In this document: piece after piece, positions 22,988 through 44,697 of the stretch
Layout of the letters: every line of letters starts with the position of its first letter
How positions within the stretch are numbered: position 1 is the first letter of the stretch
Source: an uncultured Phycisphaerales bacterium
GTDB lineage: Bacteria > Planctomycetota > Phycisphaerae > Sedimentisphaerales > Anaerohalosphaeraceae
Assembly: GCA_937868095.1 (NCBI GenBank)
Contig: CALMLO010000014.1
Coordinates: 1-64,000, forward strand
Direction of reading: 5' to 3'
DNA: 64,000 nucleotides
Made by a program: the position numbers and the translations under genes
The notes under the pieces: model-generated
The model's input: the letters and a program-made list of their open reading frames with translations, nothing else
The model's database searches: none
Told to the model about the DNA's origin: nothing

Positions 22988-25840
22988 TCATTGCCTCAAG
23001 GCGCCAACCACCTTGGCACAGCGGCTGCACAAGTCGGGAAAGTGAGGGTCTTCTCCAACGCTGGGCCAGAAGTTCCAGCACCGCTGACACTTCGGATAAG
23101 GGCTTTTATCAGCCGTGATTTTACGAACGGGGCCTTTGTCGAGGGTAACGCCGCTGACAATACACAACGCAGCAAAGGTGGAGACCCCTAATTCCTCAAG
23201 CAAAGCAAACAGCGACTCATCCTCGAGGGTAATCTGCACCCACGCCTCCTGATTGGAGCCGATAATCTGCTCTTTGCGGAGCGGTTCGAGTACACGAAGA
23301 ACCTCGTCACGCAAGGCCATAATCTTCTCCCATCGCTCTTCGTCGGCCTCATAGGGAATCGACGGGTCGGCCTGGGGCAGATGGGCCAGATGAACACTGT
23401 CCACCGGCTCGGATTTATACCGGATGGCAGCCCATGCCTCTTCAGCCGTATGAACCAGAACCGGAGCCAGCAGGCGCACCAGCGCATCAAGAATGGCATA
23501 CATAACAGTTTGACCGCTGCGGCGGTTGGGACTGTCGGCCGCCTCGCAGTACATCCGATCCTTGAGCACATCCATATAAATGCTGCTCATCTCAACCACG
23601 CAGAAATTATAAATCAGCGAAAAAACGCGATGAAAAGCAAAATCTTCATAGGCCTGCCGAACCTGAACAATCAATTTCTGAAGGGCCTCCATAGCCCACT
23701 GGTCCAGCGGCAAAAGCCGGCTGTACGGCAAACGCATAGAGTCGGGGACAAAATCATCCAGATTGCCCAGCAGGTAGCGGAGCGTATTCCGGATTTTGCG
23801 ATAGGCCTCCTGCAGCCGTCCGATGAGTTCATCGCTGCAGCGCATATCCTCCTGATAATTGACGCTGGCCACCCACAACCGGAGAATATCGGCACCGTAT
23901 TTTTCAATTTCTTCCAGAGCGCTGACATAATTGCCGGCAGACTTGGACTGCTTCATCCCCTTTTCGTCAACCGTAAAGCCGTGGGTAAGCACCGTCTGAA
24001 ACGGCGGCCGGCCGATAGCCCCCAGCGCCGGCAGCAGAGACAATTGAAACCACCCCCGGTGCTGATCAGAACCTTCGAGATACAAATCAACCGGCACGGG
24101 CCAGCCGGCTTTGACCGCAACACTGTGCCAGCTGCAGCCGGACTCAAACCATACATCAAAAATGTTCTCTTCCTTCTGCAGGTCATCCCAGCAGAAGCCC
24201 GCCGGCAGCGGAAAATCCTCACCCAGAATCTCTCGGGGCGAATCCGTAAACCAGCTGTCCGAACCCTTCCGGCCGATATGGCGGGCCGCCGCCAGCACCG
24301 ATTCGCGGGTAAGCAGAACCTGCCCGGCACTGTTGGTAAAGACCGGAATAGGAAGCCCCCACGCACGCTGTCGGCTGATGCACCAGTCGGGACGGCTTTC
24401 GAGCATGCCTCGAATCCGCTTTTCACCCCAGGCGGGAATCCAGCGGACCTGTCCAATCTGGGCAAGAGCCATTTCACGAAGGGTTTGGCCGAACGCCGCC
24501 GCCGGACGATCCACACCGATAAACCACTGTTCGGTAGCCCGGAAAATCACAGGCATCTTGCTGCGCCAGCAGTGAGGATAACTGTGGACAATCTTGCCTT
24601 CATGCACCAGCAGGCCGATTTTTCGCAGATGCTCGTTGACCTCGGCATCCACGTGTAAAACATTTTTGCCCCGCAGCCAGGACGGCACGGACTCATCATA
24701 ACAGCCGTCATCTTTGACCGGAGAATAGATAGCCAGATTATGGCGGATTCCCGCCTCATAGTCTTCCTGCCCATGACCGGGCGCAATATGGACAATCCCT
24801 GTGCCGTCCTCCGTCGTTACAAAGGTTTCGTTGATGGCAAACCACGCCTCCCGGTCCGTGGGATTTTTATCCAGAAACGGATGCCGATAGCGCAGCCCTG
24901 CAAACTCCTTCCCCAGCCGCGGAGCACTGACCCGATAGCGGCCGGCCGTCAGACCCGCCGCCGCCGCAACCGCCTCCAGACGCTCTTTGCAGACAATCGA
25001 AGCCCATTTCCGCCCGTCCTTCTCGTAAGACAGGCAGACATACTCAAGATTCGGATGCAGCGCCGCCGCCAGATTGGCGGCCAGCGTCCACGGAGTCGTC
25101 GTCCAAATCATAAAGCAGACGGTGCTGTCTTCATCCGCCAGACCCATTTGGCGCACGCGGGCGGCCGAAGAGTCCTCCAGCGGAAAATTGACATAAATAC
25201 TCGGCGAGGCAATATCCTGATATTCCAGTTCCGCTTCCGCCAGAGCCGTCTGGCATCCAACAGACCAGTGAATCGGCTTGCGCTGCTTGAAGACCAGACC
25301 ATTGCTTACCAGTTCGGCAAAAACTTCAAGAATGCCCTGCTCATACGACGGCGCAAGCGTCAGATAAGGGTTGGCAAAATCCCCGAACACCCCAAGAGAC
25401 TGAAACTGTTTGGTTTGCAGTTTGACATACTTGAGGGCGTATTTATGGCACTGCCGGCGGATTTCGAGTTTGGACATCGTGCGGGCGGCCTCGCCCAGTT
25501 CGGCCATCACCTTCACTTCAATAGGAAGACCATGGCAATCCCACCCGGGCACATAGGGACAGCAAAAACCGCACATCGTTTTATACTTGATGACAAAATC
25601 CTTAAGGACTTTGTTAATCACATGCCCCATATGAATATCGCCGTTGGCATACGGCGGGCCGTCATGAAGAACATACAGCGGCGCATTTTGCCGGCCCTGA
25701 AGGATTTTGCCGTAAATATTCTCCTTTTCCCACGCCTTGCGCTGCAGCGGCTCACGCTGAGTAAGATTGGCCTTCATCGCAAAACTGGTTTGCGGCAGAT
25801 TCAGCGTGTCTCGATAACCTTTTTTCTCAGTATCTGACAT
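22988..25840 (-). CDS. ileS: Isoleucyl-tRNA synthetase
   Basis: IleS charges tRNA-Ile and edits mischarged Val. The 950-residue class I enzyme has the HIGH-type motif in PYANGDIHMGHVINK, the KMSKS-type loop as KGMKQSKSAGN and an editing domain with the WTTTPWTLAANLA segment. It ends in the bacterial zinc-binding Cys pairs CQRCWNF and CSRCAKV. The N terminus (YRDTLNLPQTSFAMKANL) matches bacterial IleS. It may be regulated by the Ile leader peptide and terminator located 190-360 bp upstream on the same strand. A TTGACA-containing promoter candidate closer to the gene could bypass this control. The downstream neighbour is an exported peptidase. Confidence 0.97.
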   Translation of the reverse strand: MSDTEKKGYRDTLNLPQTSFAMKANLTQREPLQRKAWEKENIYGKILQGRQNAPLYVLHDGPPYANGDIHMGHVINKVLKDFVIKYKTMCGFCCPYVPGWDCHGLPIEVKVMAELGEAARTMSKLEIRRQCHKYALKYVKLQTKQFQSLGVFGDFANPYLTLAPSYEQGILEVFAELVSNGLVFKQRKPIHWSVGCQTALAEAELEYQDIASPSIYVNFPLEDSSAARVRQMGLADEDSTVCFMIWTTTPWTLAANLAAALHPNLEYVCLSYEKDGRKWASIVCKERLEAVAAAAGLTAGRYRVSAPRLGKEFAGLRYRHPFLDKNPTDREAWFAINETFVTTEDGTGIVHIAPGHGQEDYEAGIRHNLAIYSPVKDDGCYDESVPSWLRGKNVLHVDAEVNEHLRKIGLLVHEGKIVHSYPHCWRSKMPVIFRATEQWFIGVDRPAAAFGQTLREMALAQIGQVRWIPAWGEKRIRGMLESRPDWCISRQRAWGLPIPVFTNSAGQVLLTRESVLAAARHIGRKGSDSWFTDSPREILGEDFPLPAGFCWDDLQKEENIFDVWFESGCSWHSVAVKAGWPVPVDLYLEGSDQHRGWFQLSLLPALGAIGRPPFQTVLTHGFTVDEKGMKQSKSAGNYVSALEEIEKYGADILRLWVASVNYQEDMRCSDELIGRLQEAYRKIRNTLRYLLGNLDDFVPDSMRLPYSRLLPLDQWAMEALQKLIVQVRQAYEDFAFHRVFSLIYNFCVVEMSSIYMDVLKDRMYCEAADSPNRRSGQTVMYAILDALVRLLAPVLVHTAEEAWAAIRYKSEPVDSVHLAHLPQADPSIPYEADEERWEKIMALRDEVLRVLEPLRKEQIIGSNQEAWVQITLEDESLFALLEELGVSTFAALCIVSGVTLDKGPVRKITADKSPYPKCQRCWNFWPSVGEDPHFPDLCSRCAKVVGALRQ

Positions 25841-25877
25841 AATTAATCCTTAGTCTTTCCAGAACAGTAAAAGCAAT

Positions 25878-25905
25878 AGGGTACGTTTTTTTCCGGTATT
25901 GTCAA
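25878..25905 (-). promoter_or_regulatory. Possible second, attenuator-independent promoter of ileS
   Basis: On the minus strand a perfect TTGACA (25905-25900) is followed after 16 bp by a poor -10 (TACCCT, 25883-25878), about 40 bp before the ileS start. The -10 matches the consensus at only half of the positions. If active, it would bypass the upstream terminator. Confidence 0.35.
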
Positions 25906-26027
25906 GAACGGCGATTGCAGCCCGTAACAAGACCCGAAAGCACTCCCAACCACCATCTTTCATCGCATTGCCGTTTTCCTGCTGTCCTGACTGTCCATAT
26001 AGTTGAGTTTTCCCTTGAACTTTCTGC

Positions 26028-26071
26028 AAAAAAGAAAGGCCTTTCAGAACTCGCTGCTCTGAAAGGCCTTT
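26028..26071 (-). terminator. Rho-independent terminator (attenuator) in the ileS leader
   Basis: On the minus strand the arms AAAGGCCTTTCAGA (26071-26058) and TCTGAAAGGCCTTT (26048-26035) pair perfectly over 14 bp around a 9-nt loop. They are followed by C and six T's. The structure lies 24 nt after the stop codon of the Ile-rich leader peptide and about 190 nt before the ileS start. The 5' arm can alternatively pair, over the 9 bases TTTCAGAGC (26064-26056), with GCTCTGAAA (26101-26093), which overlaps the leader stop codon. That gives an antiterminator. No other annotated gene reads into this terminator. Confidence 0.85.
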
Positions 26072-26094
26072 GAGGGCTTATTTTGTCTCCTTTT

Positions 26095-26196
26095 TCAGAG
26101 CGGCAAGGGGCTCCCGCTAATGATGATAATTATAATGCCGGCACGCAGAACAGCCGCCGCTGCCGAGCCGAACACCAAATTCCATCCCGTTTTCAT
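26095..26196 (-). CDS. Isoleucine-rich leader peptide upstream of ileS (33 aa)
   Basis: A purine-rich ribosome-binding sequence (AAGGGAAGGG) precedes an ATG at 26196 that opens a 33-codon frame ending in TGA at 26095. The peptide starts MKTGWNLVFG and contains six Ile codons in a row (ATT ATA ATT ATC ATC ATT, 26136-26119), followed by SGSPLPL. Runs of the cognate amino acid in a short ORF just before a terminator are the hallmark of ribosome-mediated attenuation, as established for amino-acid operons and pheST in enterobacteria. Here the run matches the downstream gene, isoleucyl-tRNA synthetase. A weak protector hairpin AGCGG/CCGCT (26118-26114 with 26103-26099) sits directly after the Ile codons. 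The regulatory role is inferred, but each element is visible in the sequence. Confidence 0.8.
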   Translation of the reverse strand: MKTGWNLVFGSAAAAVLRAGIIIIIISGSPLPL

Positions 26197-26241
26197 CGGG
26201 TTTTCCCTTCCCTTCACACGAATTACCTCATTGAACTTGTC

Positions 26242-26272
26242 TATATATCGTATTTTAAACAGGAAAAATCAA
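26242..26272 (-). promoter_or_regulatory. Probable promoter of the ileS leader transcript
   Basis: On the minus strand TTGATT (26272-26267) is followed by TATATA (26247-26242) with a 19-bp spacer, or by GATATA with a 17-bp spacer. Transcription would begin near 26235, about 40 nt before the leader ATG. The 633-bp gap between ileS and the oxidoreductase gene (25841-26473) is otherwise occupied by the leader elements. Confidence 0.45.
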
Positions 26273-26473
26273 GAAAAATACCCGAAACACCGAAAAACCC
26301 TCTCCTCATCACCCGCCTGCCGGCCAACCGGCCGAAAGGAATCCGAAACCCTTCCGCCCTTTCTTTTTCCAATCAGAAGGTTGAAGAAAAACCAATCTTT
26401 CGGTATAACCGCCGATGCTGAAAATCTGAAAACCGGAACCGGCAGAACCCTTTTTTCTCGAGGAGGTATCCGC

Positions 26474-44532: not shown

Positions 44533-44607
44533 CGGCGACTCCTTAGCATAGGATTTCGGTTTTGTTTTGCGGAGTATGATAACAAGGCGGCGGCGGCGGT
44601 TCAAACA

Positions 44608-44642
44608 AAAAAAGCCCTCTCTTTATCAGAGAGGGCTTTTTC
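44608..44642 (-). terminator. Bidirectional-type terminator after the PEP-CTERM gene
   Basis: AAAGCCCTCTC (44611-44621) and GAGAGGGCTTT (44629-44639) form an 11-bp stem with A/T runs on both sides. It lies 3' of the minus-strand gene at 44698-45237. Confidence 0.88.
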
Positions 44643-44697
44643 GTGTGTTCACAACGCGTTCGTTAAACGCTTCTGGTTCTTGTGTCAACCCTTCGGC

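What the first reader, a model, noticed from the sequence alone, without database searches (positions are those of the whole stretch)
25840..26272. Isoleucine-codon attenuator upstream of isoleucyl-tRNA synthetase
On the minus strand, reading toward ileS, I see in order: a promoter candidate; a 33-codon ORF with a good ribosome-binding site and six consecutive Ile codons; an AGCGG/CCGCT protector pair; a segment GCTCTGAAA overlapping the leader stop; and a 14-bp terminator followed by six T's. Nine bases of the terminator's 5' arm are perfectly complementary to that stop-codon segment, which gives a mutually exclusive antiterminator. This matches the logic of ribosome-mediated attenuation known for amino-acid operons and pheST: with scarce charged tRNA-Ile the ribosome would stall on the Ile run, the antiterminator forms and ileS is transcribed. 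In Gram-positive bacteria ileS is usually a T-box target, and I know of no described Ile leader-peptide attenuator for ileS in planctomycetes. The mechanism is inferred; the elements are visible.
Basis: partly seen in the sequence, partly recalled or inferred. Interest (0 to 1): 0.93.

Follow-up and report, generated by a model that had tools for sequence, protein, structure and literature searches.

The report
Isoleucine-codon attenuator switch before ileS
Just ahead of the gene for the enzyme that loads isoleucine onto tRNA, this likely planctomycete carries a short reading frame with six isoleucine codons in a row and two mutually exclusive RNA hairpins, a layout shared by dozens of relatives and predicted to let a stalled ribosome switch the gene on when loaded isoleucine-tRNA would run short.

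Summary
In 32 of 116 ileS upstream regions of the order an Ile-rich leader ends 15-26 nt before a terminator. A covariance model finds the element within 5 kb upstream of ileS, same strand, in 57 of 161 genomes. Terminator and, more weakly, antiterminator covary. All 32 keep the alternative 2:3 pairing. Ile occurs 6.75 times per last 20 codons in the leader frame, 0.5 and 0.1 in the others.

Against: the AGCGG/CCGCT protector is not conserved, three closest congeners lack the element, its spread is patchy, the upstream promoter is weak, and a conserved promoter lies between terminator and ileS.

Most likely this is ribosome-mediated attenuation by charged tRNA-Ile. The same chassis carries Phe/Tyr/Trp codons before an aromatic-biosynthesis gene and Thr/Met/Ile/Lys codons before aspartate-semialdehyde dehydrogenase, suggesting one homologous attenuator with swappable sensing codons. 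No experiment was done.

The parts
26244..26272 (-). candidate promoter P1 for the leader RNA (TTGATT-N17-GATATA); weak
   Evidence: sequence. The consensus scan lists none. Many relatives have TTGACA-N17-TANNNN at the matching place, often with RCCGA in the spacer
26204..26214 (-). purine-rich Shine-Dalgarno-like stretch AAGGGAAGGGA before the leader ATG
   Evidence: sequence
26095..26196 (-). 33-codon leader peptide ORF MKTGWNLVFGSAAAAVLRAGIIIIIISGSPLPL
   Evidence: Ile-rich leaders at the same place in relatives
26119..26136 (-). six consecutive Ile codons (ATT ATA ATT ATC ATC ATT), the predicted sensing codons
   Evidence: only ATHx6 in the 3.04 Mb genome, both strands
26114..26118 (-). 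AGCGG, 5' half of the protector pair (segment 1); not conserved
   Evidence: not conserved in relatives
26099..26103 (-). CCGCT, 3' half of the protector pair
   Evidence: not conserved
26093..26101 (-). segment 2, GCTCTGAAA, overlaps the leader stop codon; 5' arm of the antiterminator
   Evidence: 2:3 pairing better than shuffles in 32 of 32; covariation
26056..26064 (-). segment 3, TTTCAGAGC, shared by antiterminator and terminator 5' arm
26035..26071 (-). intrinsic terminator hairpin (segments 3:4)
   Evidence: covariation
26028..26033 (-). U tract of the terminator
25878..25905 (-). promoter P2 downstream of the terminator (TTGACA-N16-TACCCT), would bypass the attenuator
   Evidence: promoter-like sites scoring >= 9 in 101 of 116 ileS upstream regions
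22988..25840 (-). ileS, isoleucyl-tRNA synthetase, 950 aa
   Evidence: TIGR00392 873.7 bits, cut-off 621.4; the next listed matches in this genome have 31% identity or less

Best explanation
The leader upstream of ileS is most likely a ribosome-mediated transcription attenuator in which the translation of six Ile codons is predicted to report how much charged tRNA-Ile the cell has. Inferred steps: RNA polymerase starts upstream of the leader ORF and a ribosome follows. If Ile-tRNA is plentiful, the ribosome reaches the stop codon, which lies inside segment 2, and covers it, so segments 3 and 4 form the terminator and transcription stops near 26028. If Ile-tRNA is scarce, the ribosome stalls on the Ile run, seven residues short of the stop. 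Segment 2 is then free, pairs with segment 3 as soon as that is made, and polymerase reads through into ileS. Shown by sequence: the elements, their positions, their conservation and covariation. Not shown: transcripts, stalling, response. A conserved promoter between terminator and ileS would give a constitutive floor, so the attenuator would add IleRS under shortage.
For: Elements and uniqueness. Conservation: 32 of 116 ileS upstream regions have Ile leader plus terminator with a 15-26 nt gap; of 37 regions with a terminator-like hairpin within 420 nt, 32 have the Ile leader. Model R1: 63 hits with E <= 1e-7 in 161 genomes, 57 of them within 5 kb upstream of ileS on the same strand. The other 6 are compatible with broken contigs: the contig ends 0.04 to 1.4 kb downstream in 6 of 6; four genomes have no IleS match at E <= 1e-100, one has a 3' fragment only, one (G064) has ileS on another contig. 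Segment 2:3 duplex -16.0 to -25.0 kcal/mol, shuffle means -6.5 to -15.2, p <= 0.023 in 32 of 32. Terminator: 92.5% of cells paired, 36 double-change cells, covariation score 0.306, each reached by 0 of 500 shuffles. Antiterminator: 82% paired against 30-47% when slid, covariation score reached by 2 of 500 shuffles. Ile per last 20 codons, frames 0/+1/+2: 6.75/0.53/0.12; ATT, ATC and ATA are mixed (181/64/62), so the residue rather than the DNA string is kept; seven residues follow the last Ile in 24 of 32, four in 6. No Rfam family but two tRNAs in the window. The neighbour upstream is divergent, so the hairpin ends no gene. The same chassis with aromatic codons precedes an aromatic-biosynthesis gene.
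Against: Closest congeners G002-G004 (IleS 84-85%) have no R1 match. On a tree of 49 IleS, 17 carriers need 13 gains or losses, against 14.4 for shuffled labels (113 of 500 as low). The protector is not conserved. P2 may drive most ileS transcription and P1 in the window is weak. Some linked leaders have few Ile: L097/G062 keeps the terminator with 2 Ile and no run, L243/G144 has 2. The 32 were picked for at least 4 Ile in 8 codons and R1 was trained on them, so Ile counts are partly circular; the frame comparison and 20 further linked leaders (mean 4.55, range 2-8) lessen this only in part. Exchanging segment 3 between species weakens pairing only modestly (mean -19.8 native, -17.9 exchanged), and in 6 of 32 the native partner is weaker than the exchanged mean. 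Of the five measures, two do not exceed shuffles (pairs with double change 111 of 500, pair types 245 of 500); double-change cells are reached by 43 and pair types by 54 of 500. In isolation the terminator is more stable than the antiterminator in 26 of 32, so the switch needs co-transcriptional order.
Confidence: 0.87

Rival explanations
1. A decaying attenuator: the leader is a relic in this genome, and ileS is transcribed from P2 alone.
For: P2-like sites in 101 of 116 regions, weak P1 in the window; nearest congeners lack the element; a degenerate leader exists elsewhere (L097).
Against: The window copy has the only six-Ile run of its genome, an intact stop-overlapping segment 2 and a 16-pair terminator; R1 scores it at 2.6e-14, though it is itself one of the 32 training rows.
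Confidence: 0.1
2. The leader senses a nascent-chain or translation-inhibitor stall rather than charged tRNA-Ile, as drug-inducible leaders do; its siblings stand before methyltransferase, GNAT and efflux-type genes.
For: Sibling leaders ending KExxP precede Methyltransf_25, GNAT, MatE or EamA genes in the eight loci scanned, and methyltransferase or GNAT genes lie between leader and ileS in the six distal loci scanned.
Against: Ile runs go with ileS: 35 unlinked siblings have 1.4 Ile per last 20 codons (0-4) against 6.75; synonymous Ile codons are mixed; aromatic and aspartate-family leaders precede matching pathway genes.
Confidence: 0.06
3. A T-box or other tRNA-binding riboswitch controls ileS.
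For: T-boxes control ileS in Firmicutes and some Actinobacteria (PMC2494555, PMC1262725, passages).
Against: No Rfam match in the window except two tRNAs and none in 20 ileS loci of relatives. A 2008 survey lists 0 T-boxes in the one planctomycete genome it held.
Confidence: 0.01
4. The ORF is a small hydrophobic protein gene with its own terminator, unrelated to ileS control.
For: Hydrophobic Ile/Ala stretch; a terminator follows.
Against: By eye, N-terminal parts differ between many relatives while the Ile run, the stop context and its distance to the hairpin are kept; the stop codon lies in an RNA segment that pairs with the terminator arm in 32 of 32.
Confidence: 0.02

Closest known systems
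pheST leader-peptide attenuator of gamma-proteobacteria
   Same: An aminoacyl-tRNA synthetase gene behind a classical attenuator (named as an example in PMC1262725, passage; leader details recalled)
   Different: Phe rather than Ile, other phylum, no sequence relation tested; here no conserved 1:2 protector and a conserved second promoter behind the terminator
Predicted trpS and leuS attenuators of Streptomyces (PMC1262725)
   Same: Classical attenuators predicted upstream of synthetase genes by comparative genomics (passages)
   Different: Trp and Leu codons, Actinobacteria; the same paper reports T-boxes, not leader peptides, at ileS
Ile T-box riboswitches of ileS
   Same: Same gene and same signal, charged tRNA-Ile
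   Different: T-boxes bind tRNA directly and need no translated leader (PMC7583486 abstract start in a listing, and recall); no T-box match here
Branched-chain amino acid operon leaders (ilvB and similar)
   Same: Candidate leader peptides with terminators upstream of ilvB in Actinobacteria (PMC1262725 abstract; E. coli ilv recalled)
   Different: They control biosynthesis operons; this one precedes a synthetase and uses a near-pure Ile run

Membership tests
Ribosome-mediated (leader-peptide) transcription attenuator | Short ORF with a run of the cognate codon upstream of a matching gene | tested here: met
   translation itself not shown
Ribosome-mediated (leader-peptide) transcription attenuator | Intrinsic terminator between leader ORF and structural gene | tested here: met
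   termination itself not shown
Ribosome-mediated (leader-peptide) transcription attenuator | Mutually exclusive antiterminator using the terminator's 5' arm | tested here: met
Ribosome-mediated (leader-peptide) transcription attenuator | Classical 1:2 protector (pause) hairpin | tested here: not met
   a 5-bp pair is present in the window but 1:2 pairing exceeds shuffles in only 1 of 32; 20 of 32 local folds pair 4 or more nt of segment 2 upstream, without an excess in duplex energy. I recall it as a feature of the trp-type layout, not of every attenuator
Ribosome-mediated (leader-peptide) transcription attenuator | Read-through rises when the charged cognate tRNA falls | not testable with these tools
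   needs transcripts and starvation
T-box riboswitch | Match to the T-box covariance model of Rfam | tested here: not met
   no match at the gathering score
Known Rfam amino-acid leader families | Match to a curated leader family | tested here: not met
   only two tRNAs in the window at the gathering score

The most novel reading that the evidence does not exclude
One homologous attenuator chassis, a stop codon set in a CYCTGA/CCCTAA segment that pairs with a GGCCTTTCAGRG-like terminator arm, spread through this planctomycete order and was re-tuned by swapping the sensing codons: Ile for ileS, Phe/Tyr/Trp for the first enzyme of the ADH route to aromatic amino acids, Thr/Met/Ile/Lys for aspartate-semialdehyde dehydrogenase, and KExxP leaders of unknown signal for methyltransferase/GNAT/efflux operons. 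It would be a ribosome-read counterpart of the T-box, with codons as the exchangeable specifier.
Probability: 0.5. Interest if true: 0.82.

Novelty: new variant of a known kind. Interest (0 to 1): 0.68.

Why it matters
Leader-peptide attenuation of amino acid genes is best described in Proteobacteria and Actinobacteria (PMC1262725 and PMC4833913 passages, and recall). Here a comparative case, with covariation, places it in an order of Planctomycetota and on ileS, a gene best known in Firmicutes as a T-box target. The element has no conserved protector, sits behind one promoter and in front of another, and shares its RNA chassis with leaders that carry other codons. If confirmed, it gives a tractable system for how an attenuator changes specificity in evolution, a new RNA family for annotation, and a way to ask what the unexplained KExxP leaders sense.

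Tried and rejected
T-box: no Rfam match in the window or in 20 ileS loci of relatives. Protector hairpin as a conserved element: rejected. Single gain: the tree of 49 IleS needs 13 changes, so the history is patchy and unresolved; the label there undercounts carriers whose element lies beyond 3 kb (G017/L048). Other copies in this genome: R2 gives one strong hit, 6.7e-13; the next are 0.004 (same hairpin, other strand) and 0.006. A weak one inside the window (44602-44677, E 0.05) reads as a terminator downstream of an ORF that ends TAA. Congeners G002-G004: no R1 match; R2 gives only weak hits (best 2.7e-5) on contigs other than that of ileS. Outside the order: in 392 genomes drawn from the phylum, 8 match at E <= 0.01; the three with E < 1e-6 are of the window's family, one weak one is of its order, and the four from elsewhere have E 5e-4 to 7e-3, three of them covering only the terminator part (that search used stricter filters that lose weak matches). 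One R1 hit 9.7 kb upstream of ileS (G010) was dropped from the linked count: its leader has no Ile and it precedes a methyltransferase gene.

Counts with limits: of the 58 linked leaders I read 55 (32, 20); those of G088, G131 and G132 were not read. In one search two of 15 unlinked siblings (L234, L235) were read at a wrong stop, so I use the recount.

Literature: the searches (open-licence PMC only; two searches listed 20 of 138 and 20 of 23 papers) showed me no report of an Ile leader-peptide attenuator at ileS. Lopatovskaya et al. 2010, a survey of attenuation at amino acid and aminoacyl-tRNA operons cited in PMC4833913, is not held, so prior mention cannot be excluded. Papers: PMC1262725, PMC2494555 and PMC4833913, passages seen; all others search listing only.
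Full report
Observation. Reading the minus strand of the window: a 33-codon ORF (26196-26095) with six Ile codons at 26136-26119; a segment GCTCTGAAA (26101-26093) over its stop codon; a terminator at 26071-26035 with six T (26033-26028); then 187 nt to the ileS start at 25840. The ORF at 22988-25840 is IleRS (TIGR00392, 873.7 bits, cut-off 621.4). The gene on the other side is divergent. Its plus-strand frame is open from 26120, but a family model aligns from residue 3 of a start near 26471, so the hairpin most likely ends no other gene. ATHx6 occurs once in the 3.04 Mb genome, here. The 9-nt complement between segment 2 and the terminator arm is found in 38 of 20000 shuffles. The folded antiterminator has 9 + 5 pairs (-20.6 kcal/mol) and the terminator -25.2.

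Survey. IleS was searched in 59 genomes of relatives and in 161 of the order (131 with E <= 1e-100). I held 116 ileS upstream regions, one per genome. A hairpin scan found 37 with a terminator-like element within 420 nt. In 32 of the 37 an ORF with at least 4 Ile in 8 codons ends 15-26 nt before the hairpin. Of the five others, one (L097) is a clear relative whose leader has lost the Ile run, and four are short 9-11 bp hairpins. By eye the leaders differ in their N-terminal parts but share the Ile run, a CYCTGA-like stop context and the hairpin.

Covariance model. A model (R1) from the 32 finds 88 of 161 genomes with a match at E <= 0.01. Fifty-eight hits in 57 genomes lie within 5 kb upstream of ileS on the same strand, 35 of them within 420 nt. 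In the six distal loci whose intervening ORFs I scanned, methyltransferase and/or GNAT acetyltransferase genes lie between. One congener of the window, G001, has the element 2.45 kb upstream, ahead of two GNAT genes and a methyltransferase gene. G102 has two leaders in tandem. Of 63 hits with E <= 1e-7, 57 are linked to ileS; the other six lie 0.04 to 1.4 kb from a contig end in the reading direction, in genomes whose ileS 5' end was not listed or lies on another contig. In a phylum sample of 392 genomes, matches with E < 1e-6 occur only in the window's family. The R1-negative genomes include the three nearest congeners.

Structure. On the alignment of 32 (A1) the terminator has 92.5% of cells paired, 36 cells with changes on both sides and a covariation score of 0.306, none reached by any of 500 shuffles; the number of pairs with double changes (111 of 500 shuffles as high) and of pair types (245 of 500) are not exceptional. 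The antiterminator has 82% paired against 30-47% when slid and a covariation score reached by 2 of 500 shuffles; double-change cells are reached by 43 and pair types by 54 of 500. This support is real but weaker, and the shuffles ignore relatedness. Duplex energies of segment 2 with segment 3 beat shuffles in 32 of 32, p <= 0.023. Exchanging partners between species lowers the mean only from -19.8 to -17.9 kcal/mol, and 6 of 32 native pairs are weaker than the exchanged mean. The protector pair of the window is not a conserved feature: the mean 1:2 energy (-6.3) equals the shuffled mean (-6.4) and 1 of 32 reaches p <= 0.05. The conserved device is thus segments 2, 3 and 4 with the stop codon inside segment 2.

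Codons. In the leader frame the last 20 codons hold 6.75 Ile on average (4-10), against 0.53 and 0.12 in the other frames; 20 further linked leaders hold 4.55 (2-8); 35 unlinked siblings hold 1.4 (0-4). The selection rule and the model both favour Ile, so the between-frame contrast is the fairer control. Third positions vary (ATT 181, ATC 64, ATA 62). Seven residues follow the last Ile in 24 of 32, four in 6, five and eight in one each. That would leave segment 2 outside a ribosome stalled on the run (inference).

Promoters. A TTGACA-N17-TANNNT-like site just before ileS is found in carriers and non-carriers (best score >= 9 in 101 of 116; mean 10.2 against 8.0 for shuffles). A second promoter, often TTGACA-N3-RCCGA, precedes the leader in many carriers (mean best score 9.7 against 8.6 for shuffles) but is weak in the window. 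So the likely picture is a constitutive downstream promoter plus an attenuated upstream one (inference).

History. On a tree of 49 IleS, 17 carriers need 13 changes (shuffled mean 14.4; 113 of 500 shuffles as low). Repeated loss, transfer, or both would fit; this was not resolved.

Siblings. A second model (R2) without the Ile columns gives 106 hits with E <= 1e-6 in 87 of 161 genomes, 58 of them ileS-linked. Of the 48 others, six are the contig-end cases above, 35 were read in detail and seven were not read. Of the 35 (14 of which were in the R2 training set), 33 keep the 2:3 pairing at shuffle p <= 0.05. Their leaders carry other codons. Two aromatic ones (FYFGYWFWFYY; FYFWFYF) precede 2-amino-3,7-dideoxy-D-threo-hept-6-ulosonate synthase (TIGR01949 above cut-off). 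One with Thr, Met, Ile and Lys precedes aspartate-semialdehyde dehydrogenase (TIGR00978 above cut-off). These three were not in the R2 training set. Twenty of the 35 end KExxP; in the eight of these whose downstream proteins I scanned, methyltransferase, GNAT, MatE or EamA genes follow. What they sense is unknown. The match between codons and pathway in three unlinked cases supports reading the Ile run as the sensor for ileS, though it was noticed after the fact and not counted against a null.

Comparison. Attenuation of synthetase genes is known or predicted (pheST; trpS and leuS in Streptomyces: PMC1262725, passages), and ileS is a T-box target elsewhere (PMC2494555, passages). I saw no report of an Ile leader attenuator at ileS in the open-licence library; one relevant survey was not held. 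The taxonomy is inferred from record titles of near relatives (Planctomycetota, Phycisphaerae, Sedimentisphaerales).

Verdict. The finding holds, with two corrections (no conserved protector; a bypass promoter). The logic is classical; the gene, lineage and modular chassis are new as far as searched: new variant of a known kind.

Noticed in passing
L323 (G089 C1:1827897-1827982); L333 (G139 C147:1544-1626): Same attenuator chassis with Phe/Tyr/Trp-rich leaders (..NGVFYFGYWFWFYYEPTKP..GVGLFYFWFYFSGRSAP) before ADH synthase of the alternative aromatic pathway.
   Followed up: partly
L336 (G079 C190:7961-8037): Chassis with a Thr/Met/Ile/Lys-bearing leader before aspartate-semialdehyde dehydrogenase.
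   Followed up: partly
L225-L227, L230, L232-L237, L319, L322, L324, L325, L327, L329-L332, L335: Sibling leaders ending KExxP (20 of 35 read); methyltransferase, GNAT, MatE or EamA genes follow in the eight scanned; signal unknown, perhaps translation stress.
   Followed up: partly
L229 (G008 C103:3513-3637), L246 (G010 C1:1287891): Leaders with GMGMG-type Met-rich stretches before a methyltransferase gene.
   Followed up: no
L242 (G102 C171:6388-7530): Two attenuators in tandem ahead of ileS, each followed by an ORF of about 255 aa; the first is a methyltransferase, the second was not scanned.
   Followed up: no
upstream of leaders in many carriers, e.g. L110, L139, L163: P1 spacer carries a recurrent RCCGA a few bases after TTGACA, absent from the window; could be an operator or promoter element.
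   Followed up: no
L228 (G080 C11:163345-163465): Phe-rich leader RTFAFIFSF before a 161-aa ORF with no Pfam or NCBIfam match.
   Followed up: no
L337 (G055 C182:11048-11133): Chassis followed, after a first 139-aa ORF, by an ABC-F-like protein (ribo_prot_ABC_F 213 bits, below the cut-off of 380).
   Followed up: no
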